A stretch of DNA of 37,048 nt from an uncultured Lysobacterales bacterium. Lineage in GTDB: Bacteria > Pseudomonadota > Gammaproteobacteria > Xanthomonadales > SZUA-36. The notes beneath the pieces are model-generated. The model ran no database searches and had not been told where the DNA came from. It worked only from the letters and a program-made list of their open reading frames with translations. Every line of letters starts with the position of its first letter. The first letter of the stretch is position 1. The stretch is taken from NCBI GenBank assembly GCA_937927755.1, contig CALBDB010000163.1, positions 1 through 37,048 on the forward strand. Reading direction: 5' to 3'. This document shows, piece after piece, positions 2,112 to 31,190 of this stretch. The translations under genes were made by a program, and so were the position numbers.

Positions 2112-2140
2112 TTACGGGCAGGTGAAGTCCTTTCTATACT
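2112..2140 (+). promoter_or_regulatory. Candidate promoter for the CBB cluster
   Basis: TATACT at 2135-2140 is a good -10 match. The hexamer 17 bases upstream (2112-2117, TTACGG) is a poor -35, which would suit an activator-dependent promoter. The predicted transcript would start near 2147, about 55 bases before the fbp start. A second, perfect TATAAT at 2082-2087 has no -35 at all. Confidence 0.3.
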
Positions 2141-2202
2141 GCCAAGCAATCGAAACAGCGCACCCAATGGCGCTCCACCGCTGGTATCTGAAGGAGAAGT
2201 TC

Positions 2203-3243
2203 ATGAGCGAATACCCAAGCCTGAAAAATTACCTGGCGGATTGGGCCGGGGATTCAGAAACGCGTGCAGCGGTCTCCCAGACAATCGAGGCAATTGCAGC
2301 AGCCTGCGTTGAGATCTCGGCCCTGGTGGCCCGTGGACCGCTGGCCGGCGAATTGGGCGCTGAACAGGGTGACAACGTGGATGGCGACACCCAAAAAGCC
2401 CTCGACCTGATTGCCAACGACCTGATCATCGAAGCCATGCACAACGCACCCGTGGCCTGCCTTGTATCCGAGGAATTGGAGGAGCCAAGCACGATCAACA
2501 AAGGCGCCCCGTTGTTTGTCACCACCGACCCGCTCGATGGCTCCTCAAATATCGATACCAATGTTTCCGTTGGTACGATTTTCTCAATATTACCCACCGG
2601 GCAGAATGGTGAAGACCCCTGCTGCCTTTTACAGGCCGGTAAAGAGCAACTTGCCGCCGGCTACGTTATCTACGGCCCCCGGACGGCATTGGTAATGACC
2701 CTTGGCGAAGGCACCATGGCATTTACTCTGGACCCGAGGACCCGTGAATTCCGATTGACGAGACCGGCTATAGCAATCAAACCCGATACTACCGAATTTG
2801 CAATCAACAGCTCAAACGCCCGCCAGTGGGATGGGCATATACGTGCCTATGTGGATGACTGCCTGGAGGGTGAAGACGGCCCGCACGGCACCAATTACAA
2901 CATGCGCTGGATTGCTTCGCTGGTGGCGGAATGCCATCGCATACTCGCCCGCGGCGGTATTTTTCTCTATCCCGGCGATATTCGCCAGGGCTATGCTACC
3001 GGCCGGTTGCGGCTAATGTACGAGTGCAACCCCATAGCATTCCTTATCGAACAGGCCGGTGGTGCCGCCACCACCGGCACCCAGCGGATAATGGATATTG
3101 AACCGCAACAGATACATGAACGCATACCCATGATTTTCGGTTCAATCCATGAAGTGGAACTGGTCGAAAAATACTACGCCGGCCTGAACCCTTCCCACGA
3201 GCGCCCCCAACTGTTCAAGAACCGCACCTTGTTGCGCCACTGA
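2203..3243 (+). CDS. fbp: Class I fructose-1,6-bisphosphatase
   Basis: The enzyme hydrolyses fructose 1,6-bisphosphate to fructose 6-phosphate in the cytoplasm, as part of RuBP regeneration (and of gluconeogenesis). The 346-residue product carries the class I metal and phosphate motif DPLDGSSNID near residues 109-118, preceded by conserved acidic residues (SEELEEP), and the C-terminal sugar-phosphate region MYECNPIAFLIEQAGG. The frame is open upstream to 2122, but the ATG at 2203 was chosen because AAGGAGAA lies at the right distance before it and the upstream residues do not resemble the family. It is the first gene of the CBB cluster; prk follows after 15 bases. In a cbb operon this gene is also called cbbF. 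Confidence 0.95.
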   Translation: MSEYPSLKNYLADWAGDSETRAAVSQTIEAIAAACVEISALVARGPLAGELGAEQGDNVDGDTQKALDLIANDLIIEAMHNAPVACLVSEELEEPSTINKGAPLFVTTDPLDGSSNIDTNVSVGTIFSILPTGQNGEDPCCLLQAGKEQLAAGYVIYGPRTALVMTLGEGTMAFTLDPRTREFRLTRPAIAIKPDTTEFAINSSNARQWDGHIRAYVDDCLEGEDGPHGTNYNMRWIASLVAECHRILARGGIFLYPGDIRQGYATGRLRLMYECNPIAFLIEQAGGAATTGTQRIMDIEPQQIHERIPMIFGSIHEVELVEKYYAGLNPSHERPQLFKNRTLLRH

Positions 3244-3258
3244 AGCCAGGAGAAATCT

Positions 3259-4134
3259 ATGTCTGTCAAACATCCCATTATTTCTGTCACAGGATCTTCA
3301 GGAGCCGGAACAACTTCGGTCAAACAAACTTTTGATCGCATTTTTGAACGCGAGGGCATCAAGGCCACTTCCATCGAAGGTGATGCTTTTCACCGTTATG
3401 ACCGTGCCGACATGAAAATTGTCATGCAGGAAGAAGCTGAAAAGGGTAACAATCACTTTAGCCATTTCGGGCCGGAATGTAACCGGTTGGAAGACCTGGA
3501 AAGTGTATTCAGGCAATTCAGTGAGAGTGGCACAGGCCGTATCCGCAATTATGTCCATGATGATATCGAAGCCGAATGCTACGGAACGCCACCCGGTACA
3601 TTTACCGAATGGCGGGAAATCCCCGATGACACCGAATTACTGTTCTATGAAGGTCTGCACGGTGCAGTGGTCACCGGCGAGGTCAACCTGGCCCAGCATT
3701 GCGACTTGACAATCGGTGTCACACCGGTAATCAACCTTGAATGGATTCAGAAAATACAGCGTGACAAGGGTGAACGCGGTTACTCGACCGAAGCCATCCG
3801 CGACACCATTCTGCGCCGCATGCCGGACTACATTAACTATATCTGTCCGCAATTCAGCCAAACGGATATCAATTTCCAGCGTATCCCGACAGTGGATACC
3901 TCGAATGCCTTCATCGCCAGGTATATTCCGACAGCGGACGAATCCATGGTCGTTATCCGCTTTAAAAACCCGCGTGGAATCGATTTCCCCTACCTGGTAT
4001 CAATGATCCACGACAGCTTCATGTCACGCGCCAACACCATTGTCATTCCCGGCGGCAAGCTGGCCATCGCCATGCAGCTGATCCTGACACCGATGATATT
4101 GCGCCTGATGGAACGCAGGCGGCGGGCGCGTTGA
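3259..4134 (+). CDS. prk: Phosphoribulokinase (proteobacterial type)
   Basis: The enzyme phosphorylates ribulose 5-phosphate with ATP to make the RuBisCO substrate RuBP. At 291 residues it has the length of the octameric proteobacterial class. The P-loop GSSGAGTTS lies at residues 12-20, the conserved EGDAFHRYDR region at about 40-49, and EGLHGAV follows near 130. An AGGAGA ribosome-binding site stands before the ATG. It lies 15 bases after fbp and 6 bases before the phosphatase gene, so the three are almost certainly cotranscribed. PRK has essentially no role outside the Calvin cycle, so this gene with cbbM is strong evidence for a working CO2-fixation pathway. It is also called cbbP. Confidence 0.96.
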   Translation: MSVKHPIISVTGSSGAGTTSVKQTFDRIFEREGIKATSIEGDAFHRYDRADMKIVMQEEAEKGNNHFSHFGPECNRLEDLESVFRQFSESGTGRIRNYVHDDIEAECYGTPPGTFTEWREIPDDTELLFYEGLHGAVVTGEVNLAQHCDLTIGVTPVINLEWIQKIQRDKGERGYSTEAIRDTILRRMPDYINYICPQFSQTDINFQRIPTVDTSNAFIARYIPTADESMVVIRFKNPRGIDFPYLVSMIHDSFMSRANTIVIPGGKLAIAMQLILTPMILRLMERRRRAR

Positions 4135-4140
4135 GCAACG

Positions 4141-4839
4141 ATGTTTGACTTTCAACCAAAGGCGATTGTCTGGGACCTCGATGGGACCCTTGTTGATTCG
4201 GCGCCGGACCTGGCCTCGGCACTGAACACCGTGCTGGATATGCGCGGCTTTTTCACCCTCCCCGTCAGCGAGGTCCGCAAGATGATCGGTAATGGCGTGC
4301 CAAAGCTGGTCGAGAGGGGCTTCAATGCTGTTGGGGTACGCCCTGATACGGCACAGCTTGCTGATTTGGTTGAAATATTTGCGCGTGAGTACAAGGCCTG
4401 TGCAACCGACAACACGCGCCCCTACCCGGGCGTTGTCGAGGCACTGCAGGAACTTAACAGCATGAACATACCGATGGGTGTGTGCACCAACAAACCGGAG
4501 GCCTTTACCAGGCAGATACTTAAAGGTCTCGGTCTATCCGGCTTTTTCCGCAGCGTGGTTGGTGGTGACTCCACCAGTGAACGCAAACCCGATCCGGAAC
4601 CCGTGCTGGCCTGTCTGCGTGGCCTGTTCACGGAACCTGCAGCGAGCCTGATGATTGGTGATTCCGTGCATGACGTACACGCAGCCCATGCAGCAGGTGT
4701 TTATATCGGCGTGGTCCCATGGGGCTACAGGTCAGCACCGGTGGAGGAGTTGGGTGCAGATTTTGTAATACACGAACTTGCCGGTTTGGCCGGAATGATT
4801 CGTGCCGCGGGGCAGACACTAAAACCTACTGCGCACTAG
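4141..4839 (+). CDS. gph: Phosphoglycolate phosphatase (HAD family)
   Basis: This 232-residue HAD hydrolase has motif I DLDGTLVDS (nucleophile Asp near residue 12), motif II in GVCTNKPEAF, the motif III lysine in KPDPEPVL and motif IV GDSVHD. The sequence around motif I and the cap fit Gph/CbbZ, which dephosphorylates 2-phosphoglycolate made when RuBisCO reacts with O2. This suits a form II enzyme, whose CO2/O2 specificity is low in the characterised members. The ATG lies 6 bases after the prk stop with no strong ribosome-binding site, which suggests translational coupling. In cbb operons the gene is called cbbZ. Other HAD phosphatases of this size exist, but the context makes this call secure. 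Confidence 0.9.
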   Translation: MFDFQPKAIVWDLDGTLVDSAPDLASALNTVLDMRGFFTLPVSEVRKMIGNGVPKLVERGFNAVGVRPDTAQLADLVEIFAREYKACATDNTRPYPGVVEALQELNSMNIPMGVCTNKPEAFTRQILKGLGLSGFFRSVVGGDSTSERKPDPEPVLACLRGLFTEPAASLMIGDSVHDVHAAHAAGVYIGVVPWGYRSAPVEELGADFVIHELAGLAGMIRAAGQTLKPTAH

Positions 4840-4844
4840 TTTGT

Positions 4845-4866
4845 AGGCGGCTAAAAAAAACCGCCT
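4845..4866 (+). other. Hairpin between gph and cbbM
   Basis: AGGCGG (4845-4850) and CCGCCT (4861-4866) form a 6-bp stem around a 10-base loop rich in A. There is no T run after it, so it is not a clear terminator. It could protect or separate the abundant cbbM message. Confidence 0.4.
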
Positions 4867-4899
4867 GAAGAGATTTTAATTGAAAGAGAGGACAAAACT

Positions 4900-6282
4900 A
4901 TGGATCAATCCGGCCGTTATGCAGACTTAAGTCTGAAAGAAGAAGACCTGATCGCCGGTGGTAATCACATGCTGGTCGCCTACACCATGACCCCAATGCC
5001 GGGCTTTGGCGGCTACCTGGAAACAGCAGCCCACTTCGCAGCGGAGTCATCCACCGGCACCAACGTCGAGGTTTCCACCACCGATGACTTTACCAAGGGC
5101 GTTGACGCCATGGTTTATGAGATCGACGAGGCCAACGGCATAATGAAAATTGCCTACCCGATCGAGTTGTTTGACCGCAATATCATTGATGGCCGCACGA
5201 TGGTGGTTTCATTCCTGACGCTGGCGATCGGGAACAACCAGGGTATGGGTGATGTACAGTGCGCGCAAATGCAGGATTTTTGGGTACCGCGCAAGTTGCT
5301 GCAACTTTACGATGGCCCTTCAAAATCCATCAATGATCTGTGGACCCTGCTTGGCAGGGACTACAACGACGGCGGTTACATAGCCGGCACCATAATCAAG
5401 CCCAAGCTGGGTCTGCGTCCCGAACCCTTTGCCGAAGCCGCTTACCAGTTCTGGCTCGGTGGTGATTTCATAAAGAACGACGAACCCCAGGGCAACCAGC
5501 TTTTCTGCCCGATGAAGACAGTATTGCCAATGGTTGCGGATGCCATGAAACGCGCCCAGGACGAGACCGGTGAGCCAAAACTATTCTCGGCCAATATAAC
5601 TGCTGATGACTACCATGAAATGTGCGCCAGGGCCGATTACGTGCTCGAAACTTTTGGTGAAGATTCTCCGCGAGTGGCCTTGCTGGTCGACGGCTATGTC
5701 GGCGGCCCGGGCATGGTAACCACGGCTCGCAGAAACTATCCGGACCAGTACCTGCACTATCACCGTGCCGGTCATGGTGCGGTCACCTCACCCTCTTCCG
5801 TGCGCGGTTACACCGCTTTTGTACTGGCGAAACTTTCCCGGCTGATGGGTGCTTCCGGTATTCACGTTGGCACCATGGGCTTTGGCAAGATGGAAGGCGG
5901 CCGCGATGACCGCAACATCGCCTACATGATTGAGCGCGACAGCGCCGACGGCCCATTCTTCCACCAGGAGTGGTATGGCATGAAACCGACAACGCCGATC
6001 ATTTCCGGTGGCATGAACGCCTTGCGACTGCCGGGCTTCTTCAAGAACCTGGGCCACGGCAATGTCATCAATACATCAGGCGGCGGCTCATACGGCCACA
6101 TCGACAGCCCGGCGGCAGGTGCTATCTCACTGAAGCAAAGCTATCAATGCTACCTCGAAGGCGCCGACCCCATCGAGTTTGCTAAAGAACACAAGGAGTT
6201 CGCACGCGCATTCGAGTCATTCCCGGGTGATGCCGATCAGCTGTACCCGGGCTGGCGCGAGAAGTTGGGCGTACACAGGTAA
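4900..6282 (+). CDS. cbbM: RuBisCO form II large subunit
   Basis: The enzyme carboxylates RuBP to two 3-phosphoglycerates. Its 460-residue length and sequence match form II (Rhodospirillum rubrum type), which needs no small subunit, and none is encoded here. Catalytic residues are intact: Asn112, Lys167 in IIKPKLG, carbamylated Lys192 with metal ligands Asp194 and Glu195 in [10 protein letters not shown], the HRAGHGA histidine segment near 290, the loop-6 lysine in [11 protein letters not shown] near 330, and [13 protein letters not shown]. Numbering runs one ahead of R. rubrum. A strong ribosome-binding site (AGAGAGGAC) precedes the ATG. It is followed by a terminator and then cbbQ and cbbO, the classic order for form II clusters. 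Confidence 0.97.
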
Positions 6283-6306
6283 TCCGGGCTGGCTCGTTAC
6301 ACAAAG

Positions 6307-6331
6307 AAGCCCCACTGAAAGGGGCTTTTTT
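6307..6331 (+). terminator. Rho-independent terminator between cbbM and cbbQ
   Basis: AAGCCCC (6307-6313) pairs with GGGGCTT (6321-6327) around a 7-base loop, and the T run extends to 6331. It lies 25 bases after the cbbM stop. It should reduce read-through, so that RuBisCO is made in excess over its activase. Confidence 0.85.
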
Positions 6332-6363
6332 GTAACAACAGGAGATAACCAAGGAACACTCAA

Positions 6364-7170
6364 ATGAGCAACGTGGAACAATATAAAATTGCTGTTGAAC
6401 CCTTTTACGCCCCACAGGGCAATGAAGTCGACTGGTATGAAGCCGCCTATGAAAAGCGGCTGCCGGTGATGGTCAAGGGCCCCACAGGCTGTGGCAAATC
6501 ACGTTTTGTCGAATACATGGCATGGAAACTCAAAAAACCATTGATCACCGTTGCCTGCAATGAAGACATGACGGCATCAGACCTGACCGGCCGTTACCTG
6601 CTGGATGCCAACGGTACCCGCTGGGTTGACGGACCATTGACCGTCGCCGCCAGGCTGGGCGCAATCTGCTACCTGGATGAAATCGTCGAAGCCCGCCAGG
6701 ATACGACCGTTGTCATTCACCCCCTGACCGATCACCGGCGCGCGCTTCCGCTGGACAAAAAAGGCGAATTGGTAGAGGCCCATGCCGACTTCCAACTGGT
6801 CATTTCCTACAATCCCGGCTACCAGAGCCTGATGAAAGATCTGAAGCAATCCACCAAGCAACGTTTTGTCGGTATGGATTTTGACTATGCAAGCCCTGAT
6901 CTGGAAGCGTCCATCCTGGTCACGGAGACTGGTATCAACGAGGAGATCGCCAAGAAGCTGGTCACGGTTGGACAGGCGGCGCGTAACCTGAAAGGCCACG
7001 GCCTGACGGAGGGCATTTCGACACGCCTGATGGTCTATGCGGCAAACCTAATCGACAGTGGCCTGTCCGCCCGCGAAGCCTGCCGCCTGGCCATGGTCAG
7101 GCCGATCACCGATGACGCCGATATCCGCAGCACGCTCGATCATGCGATCGATGCCGTGTTTATGGAATAG
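6364..7170 (+). CDS. cbbQ: RuBisCO activase AAA+ subunit CbbQ (MoxR family)
   Basis: The 268-residue protein is a single AAA+ ATPase with Walker A GPTGCGKS at residues 39-46 and Walker B ICYLDE at 101-106; the asparagine in SYNPGYQ is the likely sensor 1. GRYLLDANGTRWVDGPL is typical of the CbbQ/NorQ/MoxR group. CbbQ hexamers work with CbbO to remove inhibitory sugar phosphates from RuBisCO using ATP. The adjacent cbbM and cbbO favour CbbQ over NorQ. AAGGAA lies upstream of the ATG. Expression probably depends on read-through of the terminator after cbbM or on a local promoter that is not obvious. Confidence 0.94.
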   Translation: MSNVEQYKIAVEPFYAPQGNEVDWYEAAYEKRLPVMVKGPTGCGKSRFVEYMAWKLKKPLITVACNEDMTASDLTGRYLLDANGTRWVDGPLTVAARLGAICYLDEIVEARQDTTVVIHPLTDHRRALPLDKKGELVEAHADFQLVISYNPGYQSLMKDLKQSTKQRFVGMDFDYASPDLEASILVTETGINEEIAKKLVTVGQAARNLKGHGLTEGISTRLMVYAANLIDSGLSAREACRLAMVRPITDDADIRSTLDHAIDAVFME

Positions 7171-7188
7171 AAGTCTTCGCCGACAACC

Positions 7189-9453
7189 ATGAGCCGAGAA
7201 ACCATCGATCAATGCCGCTACCCGGAACACCGTGCCACGCTCAAATGCAATTTTCCGCAACTGGAAGACGTCTTTGACGACTGCATGGACGAGGCTGTCA
7301 AAAGCCTCTCCGGAGACGGCATCCAGGCATACCTGGAGGGCGCCTCGCTGGTCAGCATGATCGGCCGTGGCTTCGAGCCGGTACTGGTTTATCTGGAAGA
7401 AGTGCCACAAATTTGCCAACGGGTCGGCGAGCAGGCAGCCGGGCAAATTGCGCAATCTGTCTGGGACATCAGCCGCACACCCAATGGCGTATCGATCCTT
7501 TCATTCCTGCAGGCCCTGCCCTCTGCGGCCCGCCGCCTGCAAAGCAAAGGATCATTTGATCATTTTATTGAAATCGTCTTCGATTTCATGGAACGCACCA
7601 CGGGCTCCATCCACGGGCATCATACGACCATACCAAGCCCTGCACTCGCCGACCTGCTCGATAACACGGCCATATTGCTCGGCCAGATTTCCCTCGAGGG
7701 ACTTAAAAACTGGGTTGATTACGGTATCCGTTATTATTCAAGCCACCCGGAACGGCAAAAAGACTACTTTTCACTAAAATCGGCCGATTCCAGGGCCATT
7801 TTACAGCGCGAACGACACGGCACATTGTTCGCCGACAACCAACGCCGCCTCGATATGTATCTGAAGTCACTGTGGGATGAAAAGCAGCAACTCGTACCCT
7901 ACTCCACCGGCTTTGACGAGCGGCTAAAACCGCAGCCGTATTTTGATTCGACGGGCATGCGCATACCGGACGTTTGGGATGACAGCGACGCGGGTGTGTC
8001 CGGGCTGGACCGGTACCGGGCGACGCTGGCGCATATGTCCGCCCACCGGCGCTGGAGCGACAAGATCATCGTCGACAACTACAGTCCGTTTCAACGTGTC
8101 GGCATCGAATGCCTTGAAGACTGCCGGGTTGATACACTGGCCGGCAGAAAATTCCCCGGGCTGTACAAACTGTTCATGGCATTGCACCCGCAACCGTTTG
8201 AGGGTGCCTGCGGCGAGGAGAACGAATCCTGTATCCGCCATCGCCTGGCCATGCTTTCCTATGCCTGCATGAACCCGCACCACCAATATGAGAACAAGGA
8301 CATCATTGAATTCGCCAGACGTTTTCACACCATCATGCAAAAGGGCGAGTCCAGCCTGAAGGAGATGGCCGCACTGGCCGTGTCATTCATCGCCCGAACC
8401 CGCACGCAGGCCGATCAAAGTCCGAACATCCATTTTACCGATACCGATATCAGCTACCGGGATGACAATCGCCACCTGTGGATTTACATCGAAGAAAGCG
8501 ATGATGAGGAAATGTTCAACCGGGAGCGAGAGAAGTCCGTTGATGAAGAAACCCAGACCCTACCGCCCCGGCATTACCCTGAATGGGACTACCGGGCTAA
8601 AAATTACCGCCCCGACTGGGTGAGCCTTTATGAGAACCTGCACCCTTCCGGTGCAGCGCAGAAAATCGATGACCTGTTGAAGAAACATGCTGCCCTGGCA
8701 AAACAGCTTAAGCGACTGCTGGACTTACTCAAACCGCAAAATGCCGTGCGTGTCCGGTTCCAGGAGGAAGGCACCGATCTTGACCTTGACATTGCCATTC
8801 GTTCATTGATTGATTTTAAAAGCGGGGTGACCCCGGACCCGCGCATCAATATGAGCCACAGGCATGACGGGCGTAATATCGCTGTGACCCTTTTGCTGGA
8901 TCTTTCAGCATCCCTGGATGATATACCTGCAGGCTGCAAGCAAAGCATCCTTGAGCTGAGCCAGGAAGCCGTGGCCCTGCTGAGCATGGCAATCGATGAG
9001 TTGGGCGATCCCTTTGCCATTGCCGGGTTCTCGTCGAATACCCGTCACCAGGTCCGCTACCAGCACATCAAGGGTTTTAATGAAAAATGGGATTACGAGG
9101 TAAAATCCAGGCTTGCGGCAATCGAAGCCGGTTATTCGACCCGCATGGGTGCCGCCATACGCCACGCAGGCCATTATCTTTCCCACCAGCAAACCGACAA
9201 GAAATTGCTGTTAATCCTGACCGACGGAGAACCATCAGATGTTGACGCCGATGACGCGTTTTCATTGATCGCGGACACGGCCCAGGCCGTCAAGGAACTC
9301 GACCAGGCTGGCGTCTACACCTACTGCATCAACCTTGACCCGGATGCAGATGAATATGTGCAGGATATATTTGGAAACCAGTACACCGTGATTGACAGGG
9401 TTGAAAGCCTGCCGGAAAAACTGCCGCAGTTGTTTATGGCCCTGACAAAATAA
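7189..9453 (+). CDS. cbbO: RuBisCO activase adaptor CbbO (VWA domain)
   Basis: The 754-residue protein is the size expected for CbbO. A long helical N-terminal region (about 1-500) is followed by a C-terminal von Willebrand factor A domain with an intact MIDAS: Asp571, Ser573 and Ser575 in DLSAS, and Asp679 in TDGE. In characterised CbbQO systems this subunit binds the CbbQ hexamer and uses its metal site to dock on RuBisCO. A low-complexity acidic stretch (ESDDEEMFNRERE) lies near residues 438-450. It starts 18 bases after cbbQ with no visible ribosome-binding site, so coupling to cbbQ is likely. It is the last gene of the cluster. Confidence 0.93.
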   Translation: MSRETIDQCRYPEHRATLKCNFPQLEDVFDDCMDEAVKSLSGDGIQAYLEGASLVSMIGRGFEPVLVYLEEVPQICQRVGEQAAGQIAQSVWDISRTPNGVSILSFLQALPSAARRLQSKGSFDHFIEIVFDFMERTTGSIHGHHTTIPSPALADLLDNTAILLGQISLEGLKNWVDYGIRYYSSHPERQKDYFSLKSADSRAILQRERHGTLFADNQRRLDMYLKSLWDEKQQLVPYSTGFDERLKPQPYFDSTGMRIPDVWDDSDAGVSGLDRYRATLAHMSAHRRWSDKIIVDNYSPFQRVGIECLEDCRVDTLAGRKFPGLYKLFMALHPQPFEGACGEENESCIRHRLAMLSYACMNPHHQYENKDIIEFARRFHTIMQKGESSLKEMAALAVSFIARTRTQADQSPNIHFTDTDISYRDDNRHLWIYIEESDDEEMFNREREKSVDEETQTLPPRHYPEWDYRAKNYRPDWVSLYENLHPSGAAQKIDDLLKKHAALAKQLKRLLDLLKPQNAVRVRFQEEGTDLDLDIAIRSLIDFKSGVTPDPRINMSHRHDGRNIAVTLLLDLSASLDDIPAGCKQSILELSQEAVALLSMAIDELGDPFAIAGFSSNTRHQVRYQHIKGFNEKWDYEVKSRLAAIEAGYSTRMGAAIRHAGHYLSHQQTDKKLLLILTDGEPSDVDADDAFSLIADTAQAVKELDQAGVYTYCINLDPDADEYVQDIFGNQYTVIDRVESLPEKLPQLFMALTK

Positions 9454-13009: not shown

Positions 13010-13042
13010 TAAACAAAAAGCGGGGACAAATGTCCCCGCTTT
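13010..13042 (-). terminator. Strong terminator after the large modular protein gene
   Basis: AAAGCGGGGACA (13017-13028) and TGTCCCCGCTTT (13031-13042) form a perfect 12-bp stem. Read on the minus strand, the stem runs into TTTTTGTTTAT. It lies about 20 bases past the stop codon of the gene ending at 13064. Confidence 0.9.
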
Positions 13043-13063
13043 CTGGTTGTGGCTACTTAAGAA

Positions 13064-16000
13064 CTACTTACAGGTCTGGTTACCTGCAGGTCCTTTACAC
13101 TTACCTGAACAGCACTGACCAGCGCTGGTGCAGGACTCGCCTTTTTGCAGTAACAGGCATGTTTCAGAAACGGAATCCAGCAGTTGCAACTGGAAGTCAC
13201 GGAACTCACATTGCCCCAGGCTGAAGCTTTCTGCAGCTTGCAAGCTACCCTCTTTTGCAGAGGCCTGGTAAGACGACTTCGGATTACTACCCGTAGTGTC
13301 TACTGCAGGCAGGGTTTCCTGATCCACGTGCCATGTCACCGTGTTTCCACAGATATTGGCACTTTGTGGCACCACATCAGTGAACTGCAGGTTGATCGGG
13401 CTCGGCGTCTTCTTGCCCTTGCTGCGGATCGTGATGTTATCCACTGAGTCCACTACCAGCGGCAAACCTGAACTGATGTCGGTGGTAAGAACGCGAATAC
13501 CACTCTGCGCTACTCCCTCACCACACAAGTCAGCCAGCCCATTACCGTCAGGATCATCACTTACAACCGTCAGCAAGCCAGTAAACTCATCTGGCGCCAG
13601 CGGATCGCCGAGGCTCTGTGGCGTGAAGCGCACCGTGACATCCAGTGTCTCTTCACCCGACGGCAATACGATCGGGAACACACTGGGCGACTGCACTGTG
13701 AATTCATCAACAGATGAAGCGGTGATCGAATCGATGGTCAATGGGCACAGACCGCTATTTCTCAGAACCGTGGTTCTTTCGGAATAACAACCCAGGCTTC
13801 CATCCAGATCCGTGACTGTCGCCGGGAAGGCAAAGTCACCAGTCAGACCGGTTGGATCGATCACCAGGTTCGGACAAGGTGAAGTGCCGCTGATATCGAC
13901 AAACTCCATCATCTCATCCGGATCATCACTGGTGACTTTCACCTGCGCTACCTCGGGTACGTCATTACACACCACTGGTGCATAACGGATCGGGTAATTG
14001 AAGTCGGCATCCGGGCTCAGTACCAATGGTAAATCGATATCTGATGGAAGGATGAAGGAACCACCCGGTGGAACCAGTTCGATATTGGAGATTTCCAGAT
14101 CACACATACCCTGGTTGAAGAGGGTAAGGTCAAGATCTGCAAAACCGTTTTTACAAACATTGCCGAAATTACCATCGTTCGCTATCGCCAGGTTGATATC
14201 CGGCGGTGGAACCACACCATTGACCGGTGTAGATACCGGTGCCAACGATGAGGAAGCGAGGTAGGTATGACTGGTGATATCGACCGTGGCGTCGCGTGTC
14301 AGCGGCGGTTCATTATCAAAGGCCGTCGGTGAGAAACGCACCGGTATCTGCAGCGAACTGGCGGGCGCGATAACCGTGCCATCGTTGTTGCCGGACGGAA
14401 TTACAAAGTCACCCGGCTGGGCGTTGGCACCAAGCGCAATCGACACCAGGTCGAGCTCCAGCGGACATGCGCCGTTGTTTTCAACTGTAAGGTTGATATC
14501 CTTGATATCGTCCGCACAGACATTGCTAAACGCACCACTGTCAGCAATAAACGTGCTGATCACAGCTTGCGGTGAATTACCCGTGAGATCCAACACCTCG
14601 GATGGCGTATCGGGATCATCCGAGTCAATGGTCAGCTCTCCTGCGGCCGCGCCGACATCACCAGTGGGGCTGAATTCGATATCAGCCGAAACCGATTCGC
14701 CGTTTTGCAGCGTGAATGGGAATGAGATGACCGTAGCAAATTCAAATTCAGAAGAACCGGAAGTGATAGCCGCATCGCTAACTATCAAATCGCACGCGCC
14801 GTCATTAAGAATGGTTAATTGCTGGGTATTGACATCACCAAGACAGATATCGCCATAGTCAGTATCCATTATGGTAACCAGGTTGGCCTCGCCAACCGAA
14901 GCATCTGCAGTAACCTCGATCGTCGGGCGATCCGGATCATCACTTGGTATGGTCAGTATGGCCGTACTCGGCTCACCCGTGGGTGTATAGGCCACCTCGA
15001 ATGGGAAACAGAAATCCGGGCTGATCGTAACCGGGTAGCCGGACGAAGGCACGGTAACCGCAAAATCTGCATTGTCGGAGGTGATCACGTCAACCTGCAG
15101 GTCGGCGCTCCCGGTATTGCATACTTGCAGATCCTGGTATAGCGGACCATCACCGGTACAGGTATCACCAAAATGAACATTGCCGGGAACCGTAATAACC
15201 GGAACGCCTAAATCACTGAGGTTGATCACCTCGAATAAAACACCGGGATTGTTGGCTGTATCCGGTGGCGGCAAACCGTCAGGCGCATTGGCTGAAGCCC
15301 AGGCGCTGAAGAGTTTTCCACCGGCACAGGCGTTACCGTTGTAATCGCCATATTTCGGTGAACCCCCGCCTCTCAGACAAAGTTCGGGGTTGCCGGAAGG
15401 CCCTGGATTTAGACAATTTGTAAACGTAATACCGTCATCATCACTGAAGTCACACCTTATGCCAGAATCAGGCGTTACATTTGGACTATCGCCATCTCCA
15501 CACTGGCCAGCCAACTGCGGCTGGTTAGGGCAGGCTTCTGCAGCGTTGGAATACTGGGTATCGGTATTACCCCAGCGGGTAAGACCCGGCCAACCGATAT
15601 CACACCAGTTATCCGGTACCTCGGAGAGTACAAATTCCTCCATTGGTACCAGGTCACCGCCGCTATCAAGACCGAGCCGTGCACCGTAATAGTCAGTGGT
15701 GTCAGTCGGGGCAGACATGCGTTGTTCGTACCAGGTGACAACGGCGTCACCACCCGTTGCACACAACCACGGCATGACACGCCGGGCGTCAACGTTTTCA
15801 TTTGCCCTTGCCACACGGCCAATACCATTCCAGGTGAAGCCACCATCAAGTGAGTCAAACACGATGATGTCTGAGAAGCCTGTATCGGTAGCGGCAGCTT
15901 CCGTGTTGACGACAACTGCGAAGTAAATGTGATTTGGATCGGTATCGTCAACAATCACCGTTTGACTTGTAGGATTCTGATCACAACGATCATGACCCGC

Positions 16001-17440
16001 AAACGGACAACGGTAGCCATTCCATGCCGTGACAATACGTGGCCAACCAGGTACTTCGGTGAGACCATTCACACAAGAGGTGAATTTGTGAACATAGAAA
16101 TTTCCATCACCCGTGTTAATCGTTGCCACGTAGACAAAGCCATCAGAGCCTACAGTGATTCTCGGAAAAACGTCGTTATTCTGAATATCAAATGGCGCAG
16201 TCCATGTAACACCACTGTCTGATGAGCAAACAAGGGCTGCATTCTGATCGGTCGGATCAAAATTACGCCAGGTGGAATACACCTGATCATCATTCGCCGT
16301 ATCACCGGGATTCCAGCGGTCGGCCGCGATATGTTCCTGATCGGGAAAACATTCGTTTGGTATATCCGGTTGACCCGCAGGTGCCCTTGTGGGGCATACC
16401 ACGGCCGGATTAACCAAGCTTGGAAGGAATGTAACACCGTTGTCATCCGAACGGGCCATACCGGTGCAATCTATACCCAGCGTTGCTGTAGGTGGTACAA
16501 CGACCGGATCTCTGTAACCGGAGCTACAGGTAGCGGTTGTATCAATCCATGCCATGTAGAATTTTCCACTTTGACCCCAGGCAATAGAAGGATCACCATT
16601 ACCAGCACCCACCCGCCCGCTGTTGGGGAAAGTCGCGCCTCCGTCGTTTGAGGAAACCCACCTGCGGCTTTGCAGTGCCACGACCACATTTTGGCCATCG
16701 GGTGAGGTTGCAATTTCAAGTTCACCGTTGCCGCTCGTATTGATGCGGTCATTTGCACCCATTTCAGCGGTGATATCTACCGGTGTTGTTTCCAGGCTGA
16801 CCGATGTTGGTGATTTGTCCGAAACCGGCAGTGAACTGGGACTTTCAACGGCCCGAAGTTGATCGAGCTCGCTCTGAACATCCTTGGGAGCACCCGAAGT
16901 TGCAAAATCGAGACTGCTGGAAACATCCTTAAGCTGCTGGATTAAATCGGGCGCTGCGTTGGTTGGAACATTTCCTGATACCGTATATAGAGTGCCCCCT
17001 GCCGCGATGTAGGTTGTTACTCTCAGCAATTCAGAATGTTCAAGCACCGGAGCGTTATCAGGCTTAGGTGGTGAGATAACACGTGTAACCTGCATTGCTG
17101 GCCAACCGCCAACCTGCATAAATTCCTTCTCTTCTTTCCTGATATTTGCAGCCACCCCCTGAAGCTGATTCATCGCATCGCTGTGATTCAGACGTGGCTG
17201 TACAAATATCTGAACATATGCGGACGGTGTACTAGTGTCTCCGGCCCTTACATTGACCAAAGTGTGCGAATTTCTCGACACTTTTTGAGACACGGACCAA
17301 CCGTCCGGCACCCCGACATCAAATGTGTAATCGACCTTATTGAGATTCAAAGACAGGCTTTGCCGGCTCATGTCCTGTGCATAAACGGACATGGCCATAC
17401 ATAGCACCGTTGTAGTAACTAAAGTGAAAAATCTAGGCAT
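13064..17440 (-). CDS. Secreted modular protein: BNR/sialidase-like part, ASH-type modules, knottin-like tail
   Basis: The 1458-residue protein has a signal peptide (residues 1-21, ending VYA). Next is an alpha/beta region resembling PsbP/DUF1795 domains (about 30-180). A beta-propeller-like region (about 230-770) carries Asp-box (BNR) motifs such as SSNDGGATF, RSDDNGVTF and SSDSGVTW. About five Ig-like ASH/choice-of-anchor-D modules follow (about 780-1300), four with an SDDPD motif. Modules 2-4 each have two cysteines exactly 16 residues apart. The last 33 residues hold six cysteines as C-x8-C-x5-CC-x3-C-x8-C, a knottin-like pattern. There is no sortase or membrane anchor. The ATG at 17440 was chosen for GGGAGAGAG and the signal peptide. 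It appears monocistronic with a strong terminator. It is probably extracellular or on the cell surface; enzyme activity is not demonstrated and it may be purely adhesive. Confidence 0.85.
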   Translation of the reverse strand: MPRFFTLVTTTVLCMAMSVYAQDMSRQSLSLNLNKVDYTFDVGVPDGWSVSQKVSRNSHTLVNVRAGDTSTPSAYVQIFVQPRLNHSDAMNQLQGVAANIRKEEKEFMQVGGWPAMQVTRVISPPKPDNAPVLEHSELLRVTTYIAAGGTLYTVSGNVPTNAAPDLIQQLKDVSSSLDFATSGAPKDVQSELDQLRAVESPSSLPVSDKSPTSVSLETTPVDITAEMGANDRINTSGNGELEIATSPDGQNVVVALQSRRWVSSNDGGATFPNSGRVGAGNGDPSIAWGQSGKFYMAWIDTTATCSSGYRDPVVVPPTATLGIDCTGMARSDDNGVTFLPSLVNPAVVCPTRAPAGQPDIPNECFPDQEHIAADRWNPGDTANDDQVYSTWRNFDPTDQNAALVCSSDSGVTWTAPFDIQNNDVFPRITVGSDGFVYVATINTGDGNFYVHKFTSCVNGLTEVPGWPRIVTAWNGYRCPFAGHDRCDQNPTSQTVIVDDTDPNHIYFAVVVNTEAAATDTGFSDIIVFDSLDGGFTWNGIGRVARANENVDARRVMPWLCATGGDAVVTWYEQRMSAPTDTTDYYGARLGLDSGGDLVPMEEFVLSEVPDNWCDIGWPGLTRWGNTDTQYSNAAEACPNQPQLAGQCGDGDSPNVTPDSGIRCDFSDDDGITFTNCLNPGPSGNPELCLRGGGSPKYGDYNGNACAGGKLFSAWASANAPDGLPPPDTANNPGVLFEVINLSDLGVPVITVPGNVHFGDTCTGDGPLYQDLQVCNTGSADLQVDVITSDNADFAVTVPSSGYPVTISPDFCFPFEVAYTPTGEPSTAILTIPSDDPDRPTIEVTADASVGEANLVTIMDTDYGDICLGDVNTQQLTILNDGACDLIVSDAAITSGSSEFEFATVISFPFTLQNGESVSADIEFSPTGDVGAAAGELTIDSDDPDTPSEVLDLTGNSPQAVISTFIADSGAFSNVCADDIKDINLTVENNGACPLELDLVSIALGANAQPGDFVIPSGNNDGTVIAPASSLQIPVRFSPTAFDNEPPLTRDATVDITSHTYLASSSLAPVSTPVNGVVPPPDINLAIANDGNFGNVCKNGFADLDLTLFNQGMCDLEISNIELVPPGGSFILPSDIDLPLVLSPDADFNYPIRYAPVVCNDVPEVAQVKVTSDDPDEMMEFVDISGTSPCPNLVIDPTGLTGDFAFPATVTDLDGSLGCYSERTTVLRNSGLCPLTIDSITASSVDEFTVQSPSVFPIVLPSGEETLDVTVRFTPQSLGDPLAPDEFTGLLTVVSDDPDGNGLADLCGEGVAQSGIRVLTTDISSGLPLVVDSVDNITIRSKGKKTPSPINLQFTDVVPQSANICGNTVTWHVDQETLPAVDTTGSNPKSSYQASAKEGSLQAAESFSLGQCEFRDFQLQLLDSVSETCLLLQKGESCTSAGQCCSGKCKGPAGNQTCK

Positions 17441-17772
17441 AACTCTCTCCCTACCCAATGTGATTGAAAAGGGATCGTAGACACGGACCGAGGCGGCCCT
17501 CAAGTCACTGGTGGTTGTATAATCAGGCGCTTGCTCTTGCGGCAAACCACGGAAGGTTCGGGTGTTTTTATCGCCAACTTAACAGCTATCAATTACTTGA
17601 TATTTTTTTTATCCCTCTTCAAGTAGAAACCACACACCAAAGAGCATTTGTGCAATGAATGCCTTGGAGCACTCCCCCAGTGTGTTCAAATTAAGTATAG
17701 GACAACATATTTGTTTTTTCAGAGACCCGGAAACTTTGACTCAACAGGGGTCTGAATAGGGGTCGGAGCCCT
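17441..17772. other. Intergenic region without a recognisable gene
   Basis: This stretch lies between the 5' end of the large modular protein gene and the 3' end of the iron-sulfur flavoprotein gene. TATCAA (17587-17592) and TTGATA (17597-17602) form an AT-rich inverted repeat followed by eight T. AGGGGTC(T/G)GA is repeated at 17746-17755 and 17758-17767. The promoter of the modular protein gene should lie near 17450-17550 but I cannot point to convincing hexamers. Short reading frames here have no family resemblance. Confidence 0.5.
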
Positions 17773-28755: not shown

Positions 28756-31190
28756 CAGTCCCCGGAAACGCGTTTTTTCAGACCAAGCCATTTCTGCTTG
28801 GCCCAACGCAATGGCAAAGTCAGCTGCCAACTGGTCGAGGCCTTCAACTCTGCCAGCTTGTCTTCCAACTTTTTCAGTTGGTGCTTCTGCACGGCCAGGC
28901 GGTTCTCTAACTGGCTGATCTTCATGTCGTCGGGAAACCTGATCCGTCGCATATTTGATGCAAGCTGACCTTCTTCGAGAGCCTGTTTTGTTGCTTCGAG
29001 ATAAGCATGGCCAAACTTCTGATCGGGCTCAAGGTGATTGCCTTCCGCCCACTCGTTCCAGGCATTTACAAAGACCATGCGTTCCTCACCCTGCAAGTGG
29101 CCATTGGCGTGGTCAACCGCGTGGGCAAGCCAGTGCTGGTACTTCTCCGGGGTGGAGTCGAGGAATATACTTGCGCCTTCATGACGGCGGGCCCAGTTAT
29201 CCCATGCCGGTGTCACGCAGCGGATCCACTTGTAGCCGGGAGTCTCCTTGGACATCATCGAATCGGCAAGGCCCTCGTAGGTGTGTATGAAATTGTTATC
29301 GCAAACGCTTTTGAGTTCCGATCCGGCCCCTTCGAGCAGATCCGAGTCGCCTGTCAGTTGCGGACCCTTGTTCCACCAGTCCGGGGCAAACTCCACGGCG
29401 GCGTCAAAACCGATCTCATGCGGGTCACACTTGGCAAAACTCTCAACACGCACCAGGTACAACTCCCCTACCCCTGCCTTGCGCGCTTCTTCACGCCAGG
29501 TTTCCGCGGTCCTGGCCGGGTCCGGGAGCCTGTCGGTGCGGTAGACCAGGAAAAGTGGCTTGCCGTTGACACGGATGTATCGCTTGTCCTCGAATATCGG
29601 CAACAACGAGCGGATGTGGCTTATATCATCCTCCTCGCTGTACTCCTGAAGCATCAGGATATCCTTTTCCTTGCCGTCCCAACGGCGTGTCCAGCTTTCA
29701 TTGGCCCAGCACAGACAAAACGGGAAGTCAGGCTTTCCAGAATTGAGCAATTCCTGCAACGGGTGCTCCAACAGTCTGCGTCCGCTGAACCAGTAATGGT
29801 AGTAACAAAAGCCCTCGATACCGTATTTCCTGGCCAGTTCGGCCTGCTTTATACGGGTTTCTTCCTGGCGCAGGTCGTAGTAACCAAGATCGGCTGGTAC
29901 ATGCGGCTGATAGTGCCCGGCAAACAGCGGCTCCGCCTTTGAAACATTGGCCCACTCGGTAAAACCCTCACCCCACCATTCATCATTCTCCGGAATCGGG
30001 TGATACTGGGGCAGATAAAACGTGATCAGGCGGGGTGGCTTTTGCTGTGCCGTATCCACCAGCACCCTGGCAAGACGCAAGGTGGCTTCAGCCTTGGAAA
30101 CGGAAAGCACCGTGGCCATCAGCTCGGCGGTTTTTTCAGCGGTAAGGTTTTCCGACACGTACATTGATCCCCGGCGGCTGATTTCTTCCAGCTTTTTCTC
30201 GTCTGTGTAAAGAGAAATCACTTCCGCTGCAAATTCTCCGGGGCTGTCCTTTGGTGTCGCCAGGTGTCCAATACCCTTGATGCCCTCCAAACCTATCGCG
30301 GTCGAAACCAGCGGAACACCGTGGTACAGCGATTCGATGATCTTGCCCTTGACCCCTGCGCCAAACCTCAGGGGCACGACCATCATCCTGACACTCTGGT
30401 ACAAGCTATGCAGCTCTTCTTCACTCACGCGCCCCAGGATCCTGATACTCTCCGAATCCAGTGCAGCGATATCAGCAGGCGGATTTACACCAACCACGTT
30501 TATGGCAATACCAGGGATCTGCTTCTGTATCAGAGGAAAAACCTCGTTGCAAAACCATAAAACAGCATCGTGGTTAGGGGTGTGGCCACATGCACCAATG
30601 TAAAGCAGGTCTTGCCGCTTGCCAAAGTCCCGGTCTGAACCGGGAACATCCTGGTAGAAGAAAAGCGGGACGGTGAATATTTTTTTATCCGGGAATTTTT
30701 CCTGCAGAAACTTCTCTTCGACGTCGCTGAAGGTCAAAAGGACATCGCTGTTTAAAAATACAAAATCCTCCTTCTGCTCGTAGAGGTTCGCTTCTTCCAG
30801 TATTGACTCGTCGTTCTCTAGCTCGGCCTTGCGCCGCAACCTGAGGTAATGCAAATCGTGGCATTGGTAAATAATTGCAGCATTGGAATGCTCTTTAACC
30901 GCGGGTAAAAATGCTGATGCCGGATCGGGCCTGTGAAAAAAAACGTAGTCGATTCCCTGCCCGTTTTCCTTCAACCAGCTTTCCCAGTTTTCACGGTACC
31001 ATTCGCCATCCAGGGTTTCGATCCCCAATTGGTTAAGCCTGGTCGAATACGGGTCCACCCGCCTGAAATCCGCCGGCAGGAACTTAACCTCGAGCCCCAT
31101 TTTTACAAGCAACTCGAGATACATGAAGTTTGTGCGGGAACCCGCATACATGTCGTAATGCGGAACTTCATAATCTACGAGGAGCAGCAC
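28755..31190 (-). CDS. Bifunctional GT4 glycosyltransferase with WbsX/GH99-like domain
   Basis: The protein has at least 811 residues. The N-terminal half (about 1-360) is a GT4-type glycosyltransferase with GAGVKGKIIESLYHGVPLV. The second half (about 390-720) is a WbsX-like glycan-processing domain related to GH99, with FYLPQYHPIPENDEWWGEGF, FCYYHYWFSGRRLLE, CWANESWTRRWDG and NAWNEWAEGNHLEPD. A coiled coil (about 750-780) and the STSWQLTLPLRWAK motif common in polymodular glycosyltransferases close it. The domains fit O-antigen or capsule assembly. The start given is GTG at 31190 behind AAAAGGA, but the same frame stays open and protein-like to 31325 without a usual start codon, so the true N-terminus is probably about 42 residues longer (see the next entry). 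It overlaps the next gene by one base. Confidence 0.82.
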   Translation of the reverse strand: MLLLVDYEVPHYDMYAGSRTNFMYLELLVKMGLEVKFLPADFRRVDPYSTRLNQLGIETLDGEWYRENWESWLKENGQGIDYVFFHRPDPASAFLPAVKEHSNAAIIYQCHDLHYLRLRRKAELENDESILEEANLYEQKEDFVFLNSDVLLTFSDVEEKFLQEKFPDKKIFTVPLFFYQDVPGSDRDFGKRQDLLYIGACGHTPNHDAVLWFCNEVFPLIQKQIPGIAINVVGVNPPADIAALDSESIRILGRVSEEELHSLYQSVRMMVVPLRFGAGVKGKIIESLYHGVPLVSTAIGLEGIKGIGHLATPKDSPGEFAAEVISLYTDEKKLEEISRRGSMYVSENLTAEKTAELMATVLSVSKAEATLRLARVLVDTAQQKPPRLITFYLPQYHPIPENDEWWGEGFTEWANVSKAEPLFAGHYQPHVPADLGYYDLRQEETRIKQAELARKYGIEGFCYYHYWFSGRRLLEHPLQELLNSGKPDFPFCLCWANESWTRRWDGKEKDILMLQEYSEEDDISHIRSLLPIFEDKRYIRVNGKPLFLVYRTDRLPDPARTAETWREEARKAGVGELYLVRVESFAKCDPHEIGFDAAVEFAPDWWNKGPQLTGDSDLLEGAGSELKSVCDNNFIHTYEGLADSMMSKETPGYKWIRCVTPAWDNWARRHEGASIFLDSTPEKYQHWLAHAVDHANGHLQGEERMVFVNAWNEWAEGNHLEPDQKFGHAYLEATKQALEEGQLASNMRRIRFPDDMKISQLENRLAVQKHQLKKLEDKLAELKASTSWQLTLPLRWAKQKWLGLKKRVSGD

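What the first reader, a model, noticed from the sequence alone, without database searches (positions are those of the whole stretch)
13064..17440. Giant secreted protein ending in a six-cysteine knottin-like domain
The last 33 residues have the pattern C-x8-C-x5-CC-x3-C-x8-C, as in small inhibitor-cystine-knot proteins, at the tip of a 1458-residue protein with a BNR propeller-like part and Ig-like modules. A disulfide-locked tip on a long stalk would make a good binding, inhibitory or protease-resistant end.
Basis: partly seen in the sequence, partly recalled or inferred. Interest (0 to 1): 0.6.

Follow-up and report, generated by a model that had tools for sequence, protein, structure and literature searches.

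The report
Bacterial knottin tail on secreted enzymes
A very large secreted bacterial protein ends in a tiny six-cysteine domain that looks like a venom-type knottin, and the same domain caps the C-terminus of many secreted proteases from distantly related bacteria, which suggests an unnamed, widely shared add-on that probably helps those enzymes hold on to something.

Summary
The gene lies on the minus strand (17440 to 13064, 1458 aa) and ends in C-x8-C-x5-CC-x3-C-x8-C-K. The knottin reading holds up. A 37-aa AlphaFold2 model reaches pLDDT about 92 over the tail. Its best solved-structure matches are nearly all cystine-knot peptides. A profile of 47 bacterial tails finds spider and scorpion ICK peptides (best E 0.0004). 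Two natural variants lack cysteines 1 and 4 together, as a C1-C4 bond predicts.

The tail is a mobile module. It caps an S8 protease in the same genome. It recurs on unrelated secreted proteins in Xanthomonadales, Myxococcales, Acidobacteria and other MAGs; roughly 35-41 of 50 carriers are peptidases. In 50 of 54 full-length copies the match ends exactly at the stop codon, usually with Lys or Arg last. Orthologues of the S8 protease carry PKD/Ig-like domains, a short Gly-rich tail or nothing there. No Pfam or NCBIfam model names the domain above cut-off.

Most likely it is a cationic, disulfide-locked binding module that keeps extracellular enzymes on substrate or surface. That function is inferred, not shown. 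A sorting signal or a plain protective cap remains possible.

The parts
13064..17440 (-). complete gene, 1458-aa secreted multidomain protein (P0001)
   Evidence: open frame from ATG 17440 to stop 13064, RBS and terminator
17443..17450 (-). Shine-Dalgarno-like GGAGAGAG
   Evidence: sequence
17375..17440 (-). signal-peptide-like N-terminus, about residues 1-22 (MPRFFTLVTTTVLCMAMSVYAQ)
   Evidence: sequence read by eye; no signal-peptide predictor was available
16796..17374 (-). N-terminal region, residues about 23-215, no Pfam match
15221..16783 (-). BNR/Asp-box propeller-like part, residues about 220-740 (weak)
   Evidence: five Asp-box-like motifs; Pfam BNR_2 E 0.05, BNR E 0.12, below cut-off
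13511..15208 (-). ASH/HYDIN-VesB-type Ig-like repeats, residues about 745-1310
   Evidence: Pfam PF22544, PF15780; NCBIfam NF012200 choice_anch_D, 5 stretches
13181..13510 (-). unassigned conserved region, residues about 1311-1420, shared with M36-peptidase and BNR-type relatives
   Evidence: 55-60% identity to L039, L040, L013; no Pfam match above cut-off; AF2 model poor
13067..13159 (-). C-terminal knottin-like domain, residues 1428-1458, C-x8-C-x5-CC-x3-C-x8-C-K
13014..13045 (-). intrinsic terminator hairpin
   Evidence: -25.1 kcal/mol, z -6.5

Best explanation
The tail is a bacterial inhibitor-cystine-knot (knottin) module that works as an accessory domain of extracellular enzymes. After export and disulfide formation it would fold into a protease-resistant miniature domain at the extreme C-terminus. 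Its conserved basic C5-to-end segment (K/R-G-x-x-G-x-K-T-C-K/R) would bind an anionic or protein partner, so that the catalytic part stays on insoluble substrate, extracellular matrix or a cell surface. In the window protein the Ig-like repeats would be the stalk, the propeller-like part the working head and the knottin the gripping foot. Shown: recurrence, modularity, C-terminal position, conserved basic residues. Predicted: the knottin fold. Inferred: export route (a type II secretin gene is present), disulfides in vivo, and binding.
For: Fold: AF2 pLDDT 92 in the tail; 5fzv ICK toxin rmsd 0.5 A, probability 0.99, and other top matches almost all knottins or colipase/Dickkopf-like folds; profile hits to ICK peptides E 0.0004-0.02; C1 and C4 co-lost in the L035 and L036 tails, 47 other tails have both. 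Module: same tail on an S8 protease in this genome, on S1, S8, M36, M10, M12B-like, M4, M6 peptidases, an SGNH hydrolase, a GSDH and BNR-like proteins in several phyla. The same C-terminal part sits behind an M36 head in L040. Position: 50 of 54 full-length matches end at the stop codon. Charge: C5-to-end segment +2 to +6 in all 49, last residue K/R in 45 of 50. Swap: S8 orthologues have PKD/Ig-like domains at that place; the PKD domain of the S8 protease MCP-01 binds and swells collagen (PMC11294657) and PPC domains of the M4 protease E495 bind protein substrates (PMC3327674). Secretin GspD present.
Against: No ligand is known. Foldseek E-values are not significant (0.27 and worse), as is usual for 30-residue domains. 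Disulfide connectivity was not measured. The two C1/C4-less tails are related proteins and may be one event. Conserved basic residues could equally serve a sorting receptor or solubility.
Confidence: 0.5

Rival explanations
1. C-terminal sorting or surface-retention signal: a folded knottin with a free basic C-terminus that an unknown receptor or processing enzyme recognises, a non-membrane counterpart of GlyGly-CTERM or PEP-CTERM.
For: 50 of 54 full-length copies end exactly at the stop codon, last residue nearly always K/R. The window protein is built of choice-of-anchor D repeats. Carriers are unrelated except for being extracellular.
Against: Only one to four copies per genome. No transmembrane helix or cleavage motif as in GlyGly-CTERM (PMC3237569). 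One protein has an internal copy as well (L021/L031). No partner gene was searched for systematically.
Confidence: 0.2
2. Protective cap: a disulfide-locked end that only shields the C-terminus from carboxypeptidases and from the proteases that carry it.
For: Most carriers are proteases; extreme C-terminal position; knottins are known for protease resistance (general knowledge).
Against: Many non-Cys residues are conserved across phyla, above all the basic ones, more than a mere plug needs. Orthologous S8 proteases do without it.
Confidence: 0.18
3. Protease inhibitor or autoinhibitory tip, like squash or spinach trypsin inhibitors.
For: Fold match to spinach trypsin inhibitor SOTI-III; most carriers are proteases.
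Against: The C1-C2 loop, which holds the reactive site in squash inhibitors, varies in length (x5-x8) and residues. Metalloproteases and non-proteases carry the same tail.
Confidence: 0.06
4. A cysteine-rich domain that is not a knottin (another disulfide pattern such as hevein-like or EB-like).
For: Connectivity not measured; four-cysteine variants exist; hevein has a similar spacing (general knowledge).
Against: Model, structure and profile matches are to ICK peptides; 45 of 50 tails have no aromatic residue, which hevein-type chitin binding needs.
Confidence: 0.06

Closest known systems
Inhibitor-cystine-knot peptides (omega-atracotoxin-Hv1a 1axh, maurocalcin 1c6w, U3-scytotoxin 5fzv)
   Same: Six cysteines with a CC doublet and similar spacing, predicted fold, basic residues after the doublet
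   Different: Those are free secreted animal peptides; here the domain is the C-terminal tip of large bacterial enzymes. Sequence matches to the Pfam toxin families stay below their cut-offs.
LEAP-2 (2l1q, PF07359)
   Same: Matches the C2-C3-C5-C6 part (G-A-S-C...EC....C), like the four-cysteine variants L035/L036
   Different: Vertebrate hormone/antimicrobial peptide with four cysteines; below Pfam cut-off
PKD and PPC C-terminal domains of bacterial proteases
   Same: Sit behind the same kinds of catalytic domain and are exchangeable with the tail in S8 orthologues; MCP-01 PKD and E495 PPC1 bind substrate
   Different: Larger beta-sandwich domains that do not depend on disulfides; no sequence relation
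GlyGly-CTERM / PEP-CTERM / choice-of-anchor proteins
   Same: Short homology domain at the extreme C-terminus of varied exported proteins, basic last residues
   Different: No transmembrane segment or cleavage motif; few copies per genome
Myxo_Cys_RPT (TIGR04201)
   Same: Bacterial cysteine-rich repeat
   Different: Only one of 47 tails matches, at E 0.07

Membership tests
Knottin / inhibitor cystine knot fold | Six Cys with C-x(3-8)-C-x(3-8)-CC-x(1-4)-C-x(4-13)-C type spacing | tested here: met
Knottin / inhibitor cystine knot fold | Disulfides I-IV, II-V, III-VI with the third threading the ring | tested here: inconclusive
   paired loss of C1 and C4 in L035 and L036 fits I-IV; coordinates of the model were not available to measure bonds
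Knottin / inhibitor cystine knot fold | Fold similarity to solved ICK structures | tested here: met
   (probability 0.99, rmsd 0.5 A to 5fzv, though E 0.29); profile E 0.0004 to 1axh
Pfam animal toxin families (Toxin_29, Conotoxin_I2, Toxin_27, Omega-toxin) | Score above the curated cut-off | tested here: not met
   window tail 19.3 against 25 bits for Toxin_29; best family E about 1e-4 among 47 tails
Hevein-type chitin-binding domain (PF00187) | Conserved aromatic residues for sugar stacking | tested here: not met
   45 of 50 tails have none; no Pfam match
Squash/spinach-type trypsin inhibitor | Conserved reactive-site residue in the inhibitory loop | tested here: not met
   C1-C2 loop variable in residues and length
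GlyGly-CTERM / PEP-CTERM sorting signals | Signature motif, transmembrane helix, basic cluster | tested here: not met
   no helix; the chain ends one residue after C6; no NCBIfam match
choice-of-anchor D proteins (NF012200) | choice_anch_D repeats above cut-off | tested here: met
   108.9 bits against 45, five stretches
BNR/sialidase propeller | BNR or sialidase profile above cut-off | tested here: not met
   BNR_2 E 0.05, BNR E 0.12; Asp-box-like motifs only

The most novel reading that the evidence does not exclude
The tail is a new kind of C-terminal address label: a folded cystine knot with a free basic C-terminus that bacteria of several phyla put on different exported enzymes so that one receptor or surface retains them.
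Probability: 0.15. Interest if true: 0.8.

Novelty: new variant of a known kind. Interest (0 to 1): 0.52.

Why it matters
Knottins are known chiefly from animal venoms and plants. Here a knottin-like domain serves as an exchangeable C-terminal part of bacterial proteases across several phyla and has no Pfam or NCBIfam entry. A 31-residue domain is easy to synthesise and test, and it may be a ready-made fusion tag for immobilising enzymes. It would also explain annotations that call such bacterial proteins conotoxin- or toxin-like at low scores.

Tried and rejected
Plasmid records: no tblastn match to the tail. Viral contigs: no relative. Best BFVD fold matches are conotoxin-like baculovirus proteins, giant-virus membrane proteins and an uncharacterised algal-virus protein, no E below 0.05. 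A degenerate DNA pattern for CC[ST]xGxxC-type sites in the genome gave eight sites; of those translated, only the window and the S8 protease are tails in real genes. The third hit in this genome (C175:548-604) lies in a frame inside a phosphate-transport-like gene and is chance. AF2 of residues 1290-1458 with three sequences failed for the domain in front of the tail (pLDDT 39). Nine paper searches found no description of this domain.

Full report
What is there. The window is one contig (C163) of a 3.4-Mb draft genome in 191 contigs. The gene runs on the minus strand from ATG 17440 to the stop at 13064 and encodes 1458 residues. A GGAGAGAG lies just upstream of the ATG and a strong terminator hairpin just downstream of the stop, so it is probably transcribed alone. 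The N-terminus reads like a signal peptide (by eye). Five Asp-box-like motifs suggest a propeller, but Pfam support is below cut-off. Ig-like repeats of the ASH/HYDIN-VesB type follow, which NCBIfam calls choice-of-anchor D. An unassigned region of about 110 residues precedes the tail, residues 1428-1458.

Taxonomy. The search at order level includes the genome that holds L052, Lysobacter sp. CFH 32150 (same coordinates). A genome of the same genus as the window corresponds to L048, a Lysobacterales MAG. The window therefore comes from an uncultured member of Xanthomonadales/Lysobacterales. Neighbouring genes encode Calvin-cycle enzymes.

Is the tail real? Yes. None of 20,000 shuffles of the protein has the motif. 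In the same genome the tail recurs at 50% identity at the end of an S8 subtilisin-like protease behind a Gly/Asp-rich linker. In the family, 11 of 39 genomes had a match at E 0.01 with the first two-sequence profile, some of them partial. With better profiles, matches at E 1e-4 were found in 11 of 348 genomes drawn from the order, 10 of 284 from the phylum of a Myxococcales MAG, 19 of 297 from the phylum of an Acidobacteria MAG and 1 of 246 from the phylum of a Phycisphaera-titled MAG. In the class sample, 2 of 369 matched at E 0.001, the window's genome and one weak, broken hit. A named scan gave 16 loci with record titles from Xanthomonadales, Myxococcales, Acidobacteria, Deltaproteobacteria, Planctomycetota and Holophagales. 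MAG titles and binning can be wrong, so single occurrences in a phylum should be read with care.

The module moves. Relatives of the window protein share its last 390-530 residues (56-57% identity) but differ in front: L039 also has Asp-box motifs, while L040 has an M36 metallopeptidase. Across 49 carriers Pfam finds 15 Trypsin_2, 11 S8, 4 M36, 3 M10, 4 M12B-like, 1 M4 and 1 M6 (some overlap), plus an SGNH hydrolase and a glucose/sorbosone dehydrogenase. Active-site motifs give similar numbers, so roughly 35-41 of 50 are peptidases. Some carriers are cut by the locus ends, so these are lower bounds. Of 54 distinct copies that reach the profile's end, 50 finish exactly at the stop codon, 2 one residue later, 1 is followed by 99 residues because a second copy comes after it, and 1 by 13 residues.

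Is it a knottin? Four lines agree. (1) AF2 with 17 aligned tails gives pLDDT 92 over the tail. (2) Foldseek against the PDB returns mostly ICK peptides and related knottin-like folds, with 5fzv at 0.5 A over 29 columns and probability 0.99; E-values are above 0.2 because the domain is so small. (3) A profile of 47 tails reaches omega-atracotoxin (E 0.0004), maurocalcin (0.0008), LEAP-2 (0.001) and other ICK peptides, and sub-threshold Pfam hits are nearly all ICK families. (4) The two tails without C4 also lack a C1 at the usual place, while 47 others have both (Fisher p 0.0009). These two are related proteins, so this is perhaps one event, but it fits a C1-C4 bond. A weaker case, L084, lacks C4, and its nearest upstream Cys looks like the last Cys of a preceding repeat. 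The disulfide pattern itself has not been measured.

How it probably works. The segment from C5 to the end carries net charge +2 to +6 in all 49 tails and 45 of 50 end in Lys or Arg. Aromatic residues are almost absent. The catalytic domains do not need the tail: S8 orthologues in the same order carry PKD plus Ig-like domains, a Gly-rich short tail with KCNPRKEECG, or nothing. PKD and PPC domains at this place bind insoluble or protein substrate in characterised proteases (PMC11294657; PMC3327674), although the review also lists PKD/PPC domains that do not bind collagen. By analogy, and because the basic residues are conserved across phyla, the best reading is a charge-based binding module. 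The genome has a type II secretin, a plausible export route for folded disulfide-bonded proteins. All of this functional part is inference.

Alternatives. A sorting signal is suggested by the exact C-terminal position and the choice-of-anchor repeats, but copies are few per genome and there is no membrane segment. A cap is possible, but the conservation exceeds that need. An inhibitor is unlikely. Each has a clear test, listed under next steps.

Literature. Nine full-text searches of open-access papers found no description of this domain. Subscription papers and preprints were not searchable, so prior description cannot be excluded.

Noticed in passing
window 2122-9453: Calvin-cycle cluster: FBPase, phosphoribulokinase, HAD phosphatase, RuBisCO large subunit, CbbQ-type AAA and a VWA protein (CbbO-like position); no small-subunit gene was seen among the Pfam-scanned ORFs, so a form II type arrangement is likely.
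   Followed up: no
window 13181-13510: Conserved unassigned region (residues about 1311-1420) in front of the tail, shared by an M36 peptidase and a BNR-like protein of the same family; perhaps a new domain.
   Followed up: partly
L107, end of the S8 protease: An orthologue of the tail-bearing S8 protease in the same family ends in a Gly-rich linker and GPKCNPRKEECG, a short basic two-cysteine end at the same place.
   Followed up: no
L021/L031 (G010 C126): Glucose/sorbosone-dehydrogenase-like protein with two copies of the tail separated by MopE-like C-x-DG-x-DNDCDG repeats.
   Followed up: partly
many carriers, e.g. L038, L043, L088, L093: MopE-like CxDGxDNDCDG repeats often lie directly before the knottin tail and seem to serve as linker.
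   Followed up: partly
L035, L036, L084: Four-cysteine forms of the tail without C1 and C4, resembling the LEAP-2 cysteine pattern.
   Followed up: partly
window 28758-31190: Fusion of group 1 glycosyltransferase and WbsX-type domains beside two sulfatase-like proteins.
   Followed up: no
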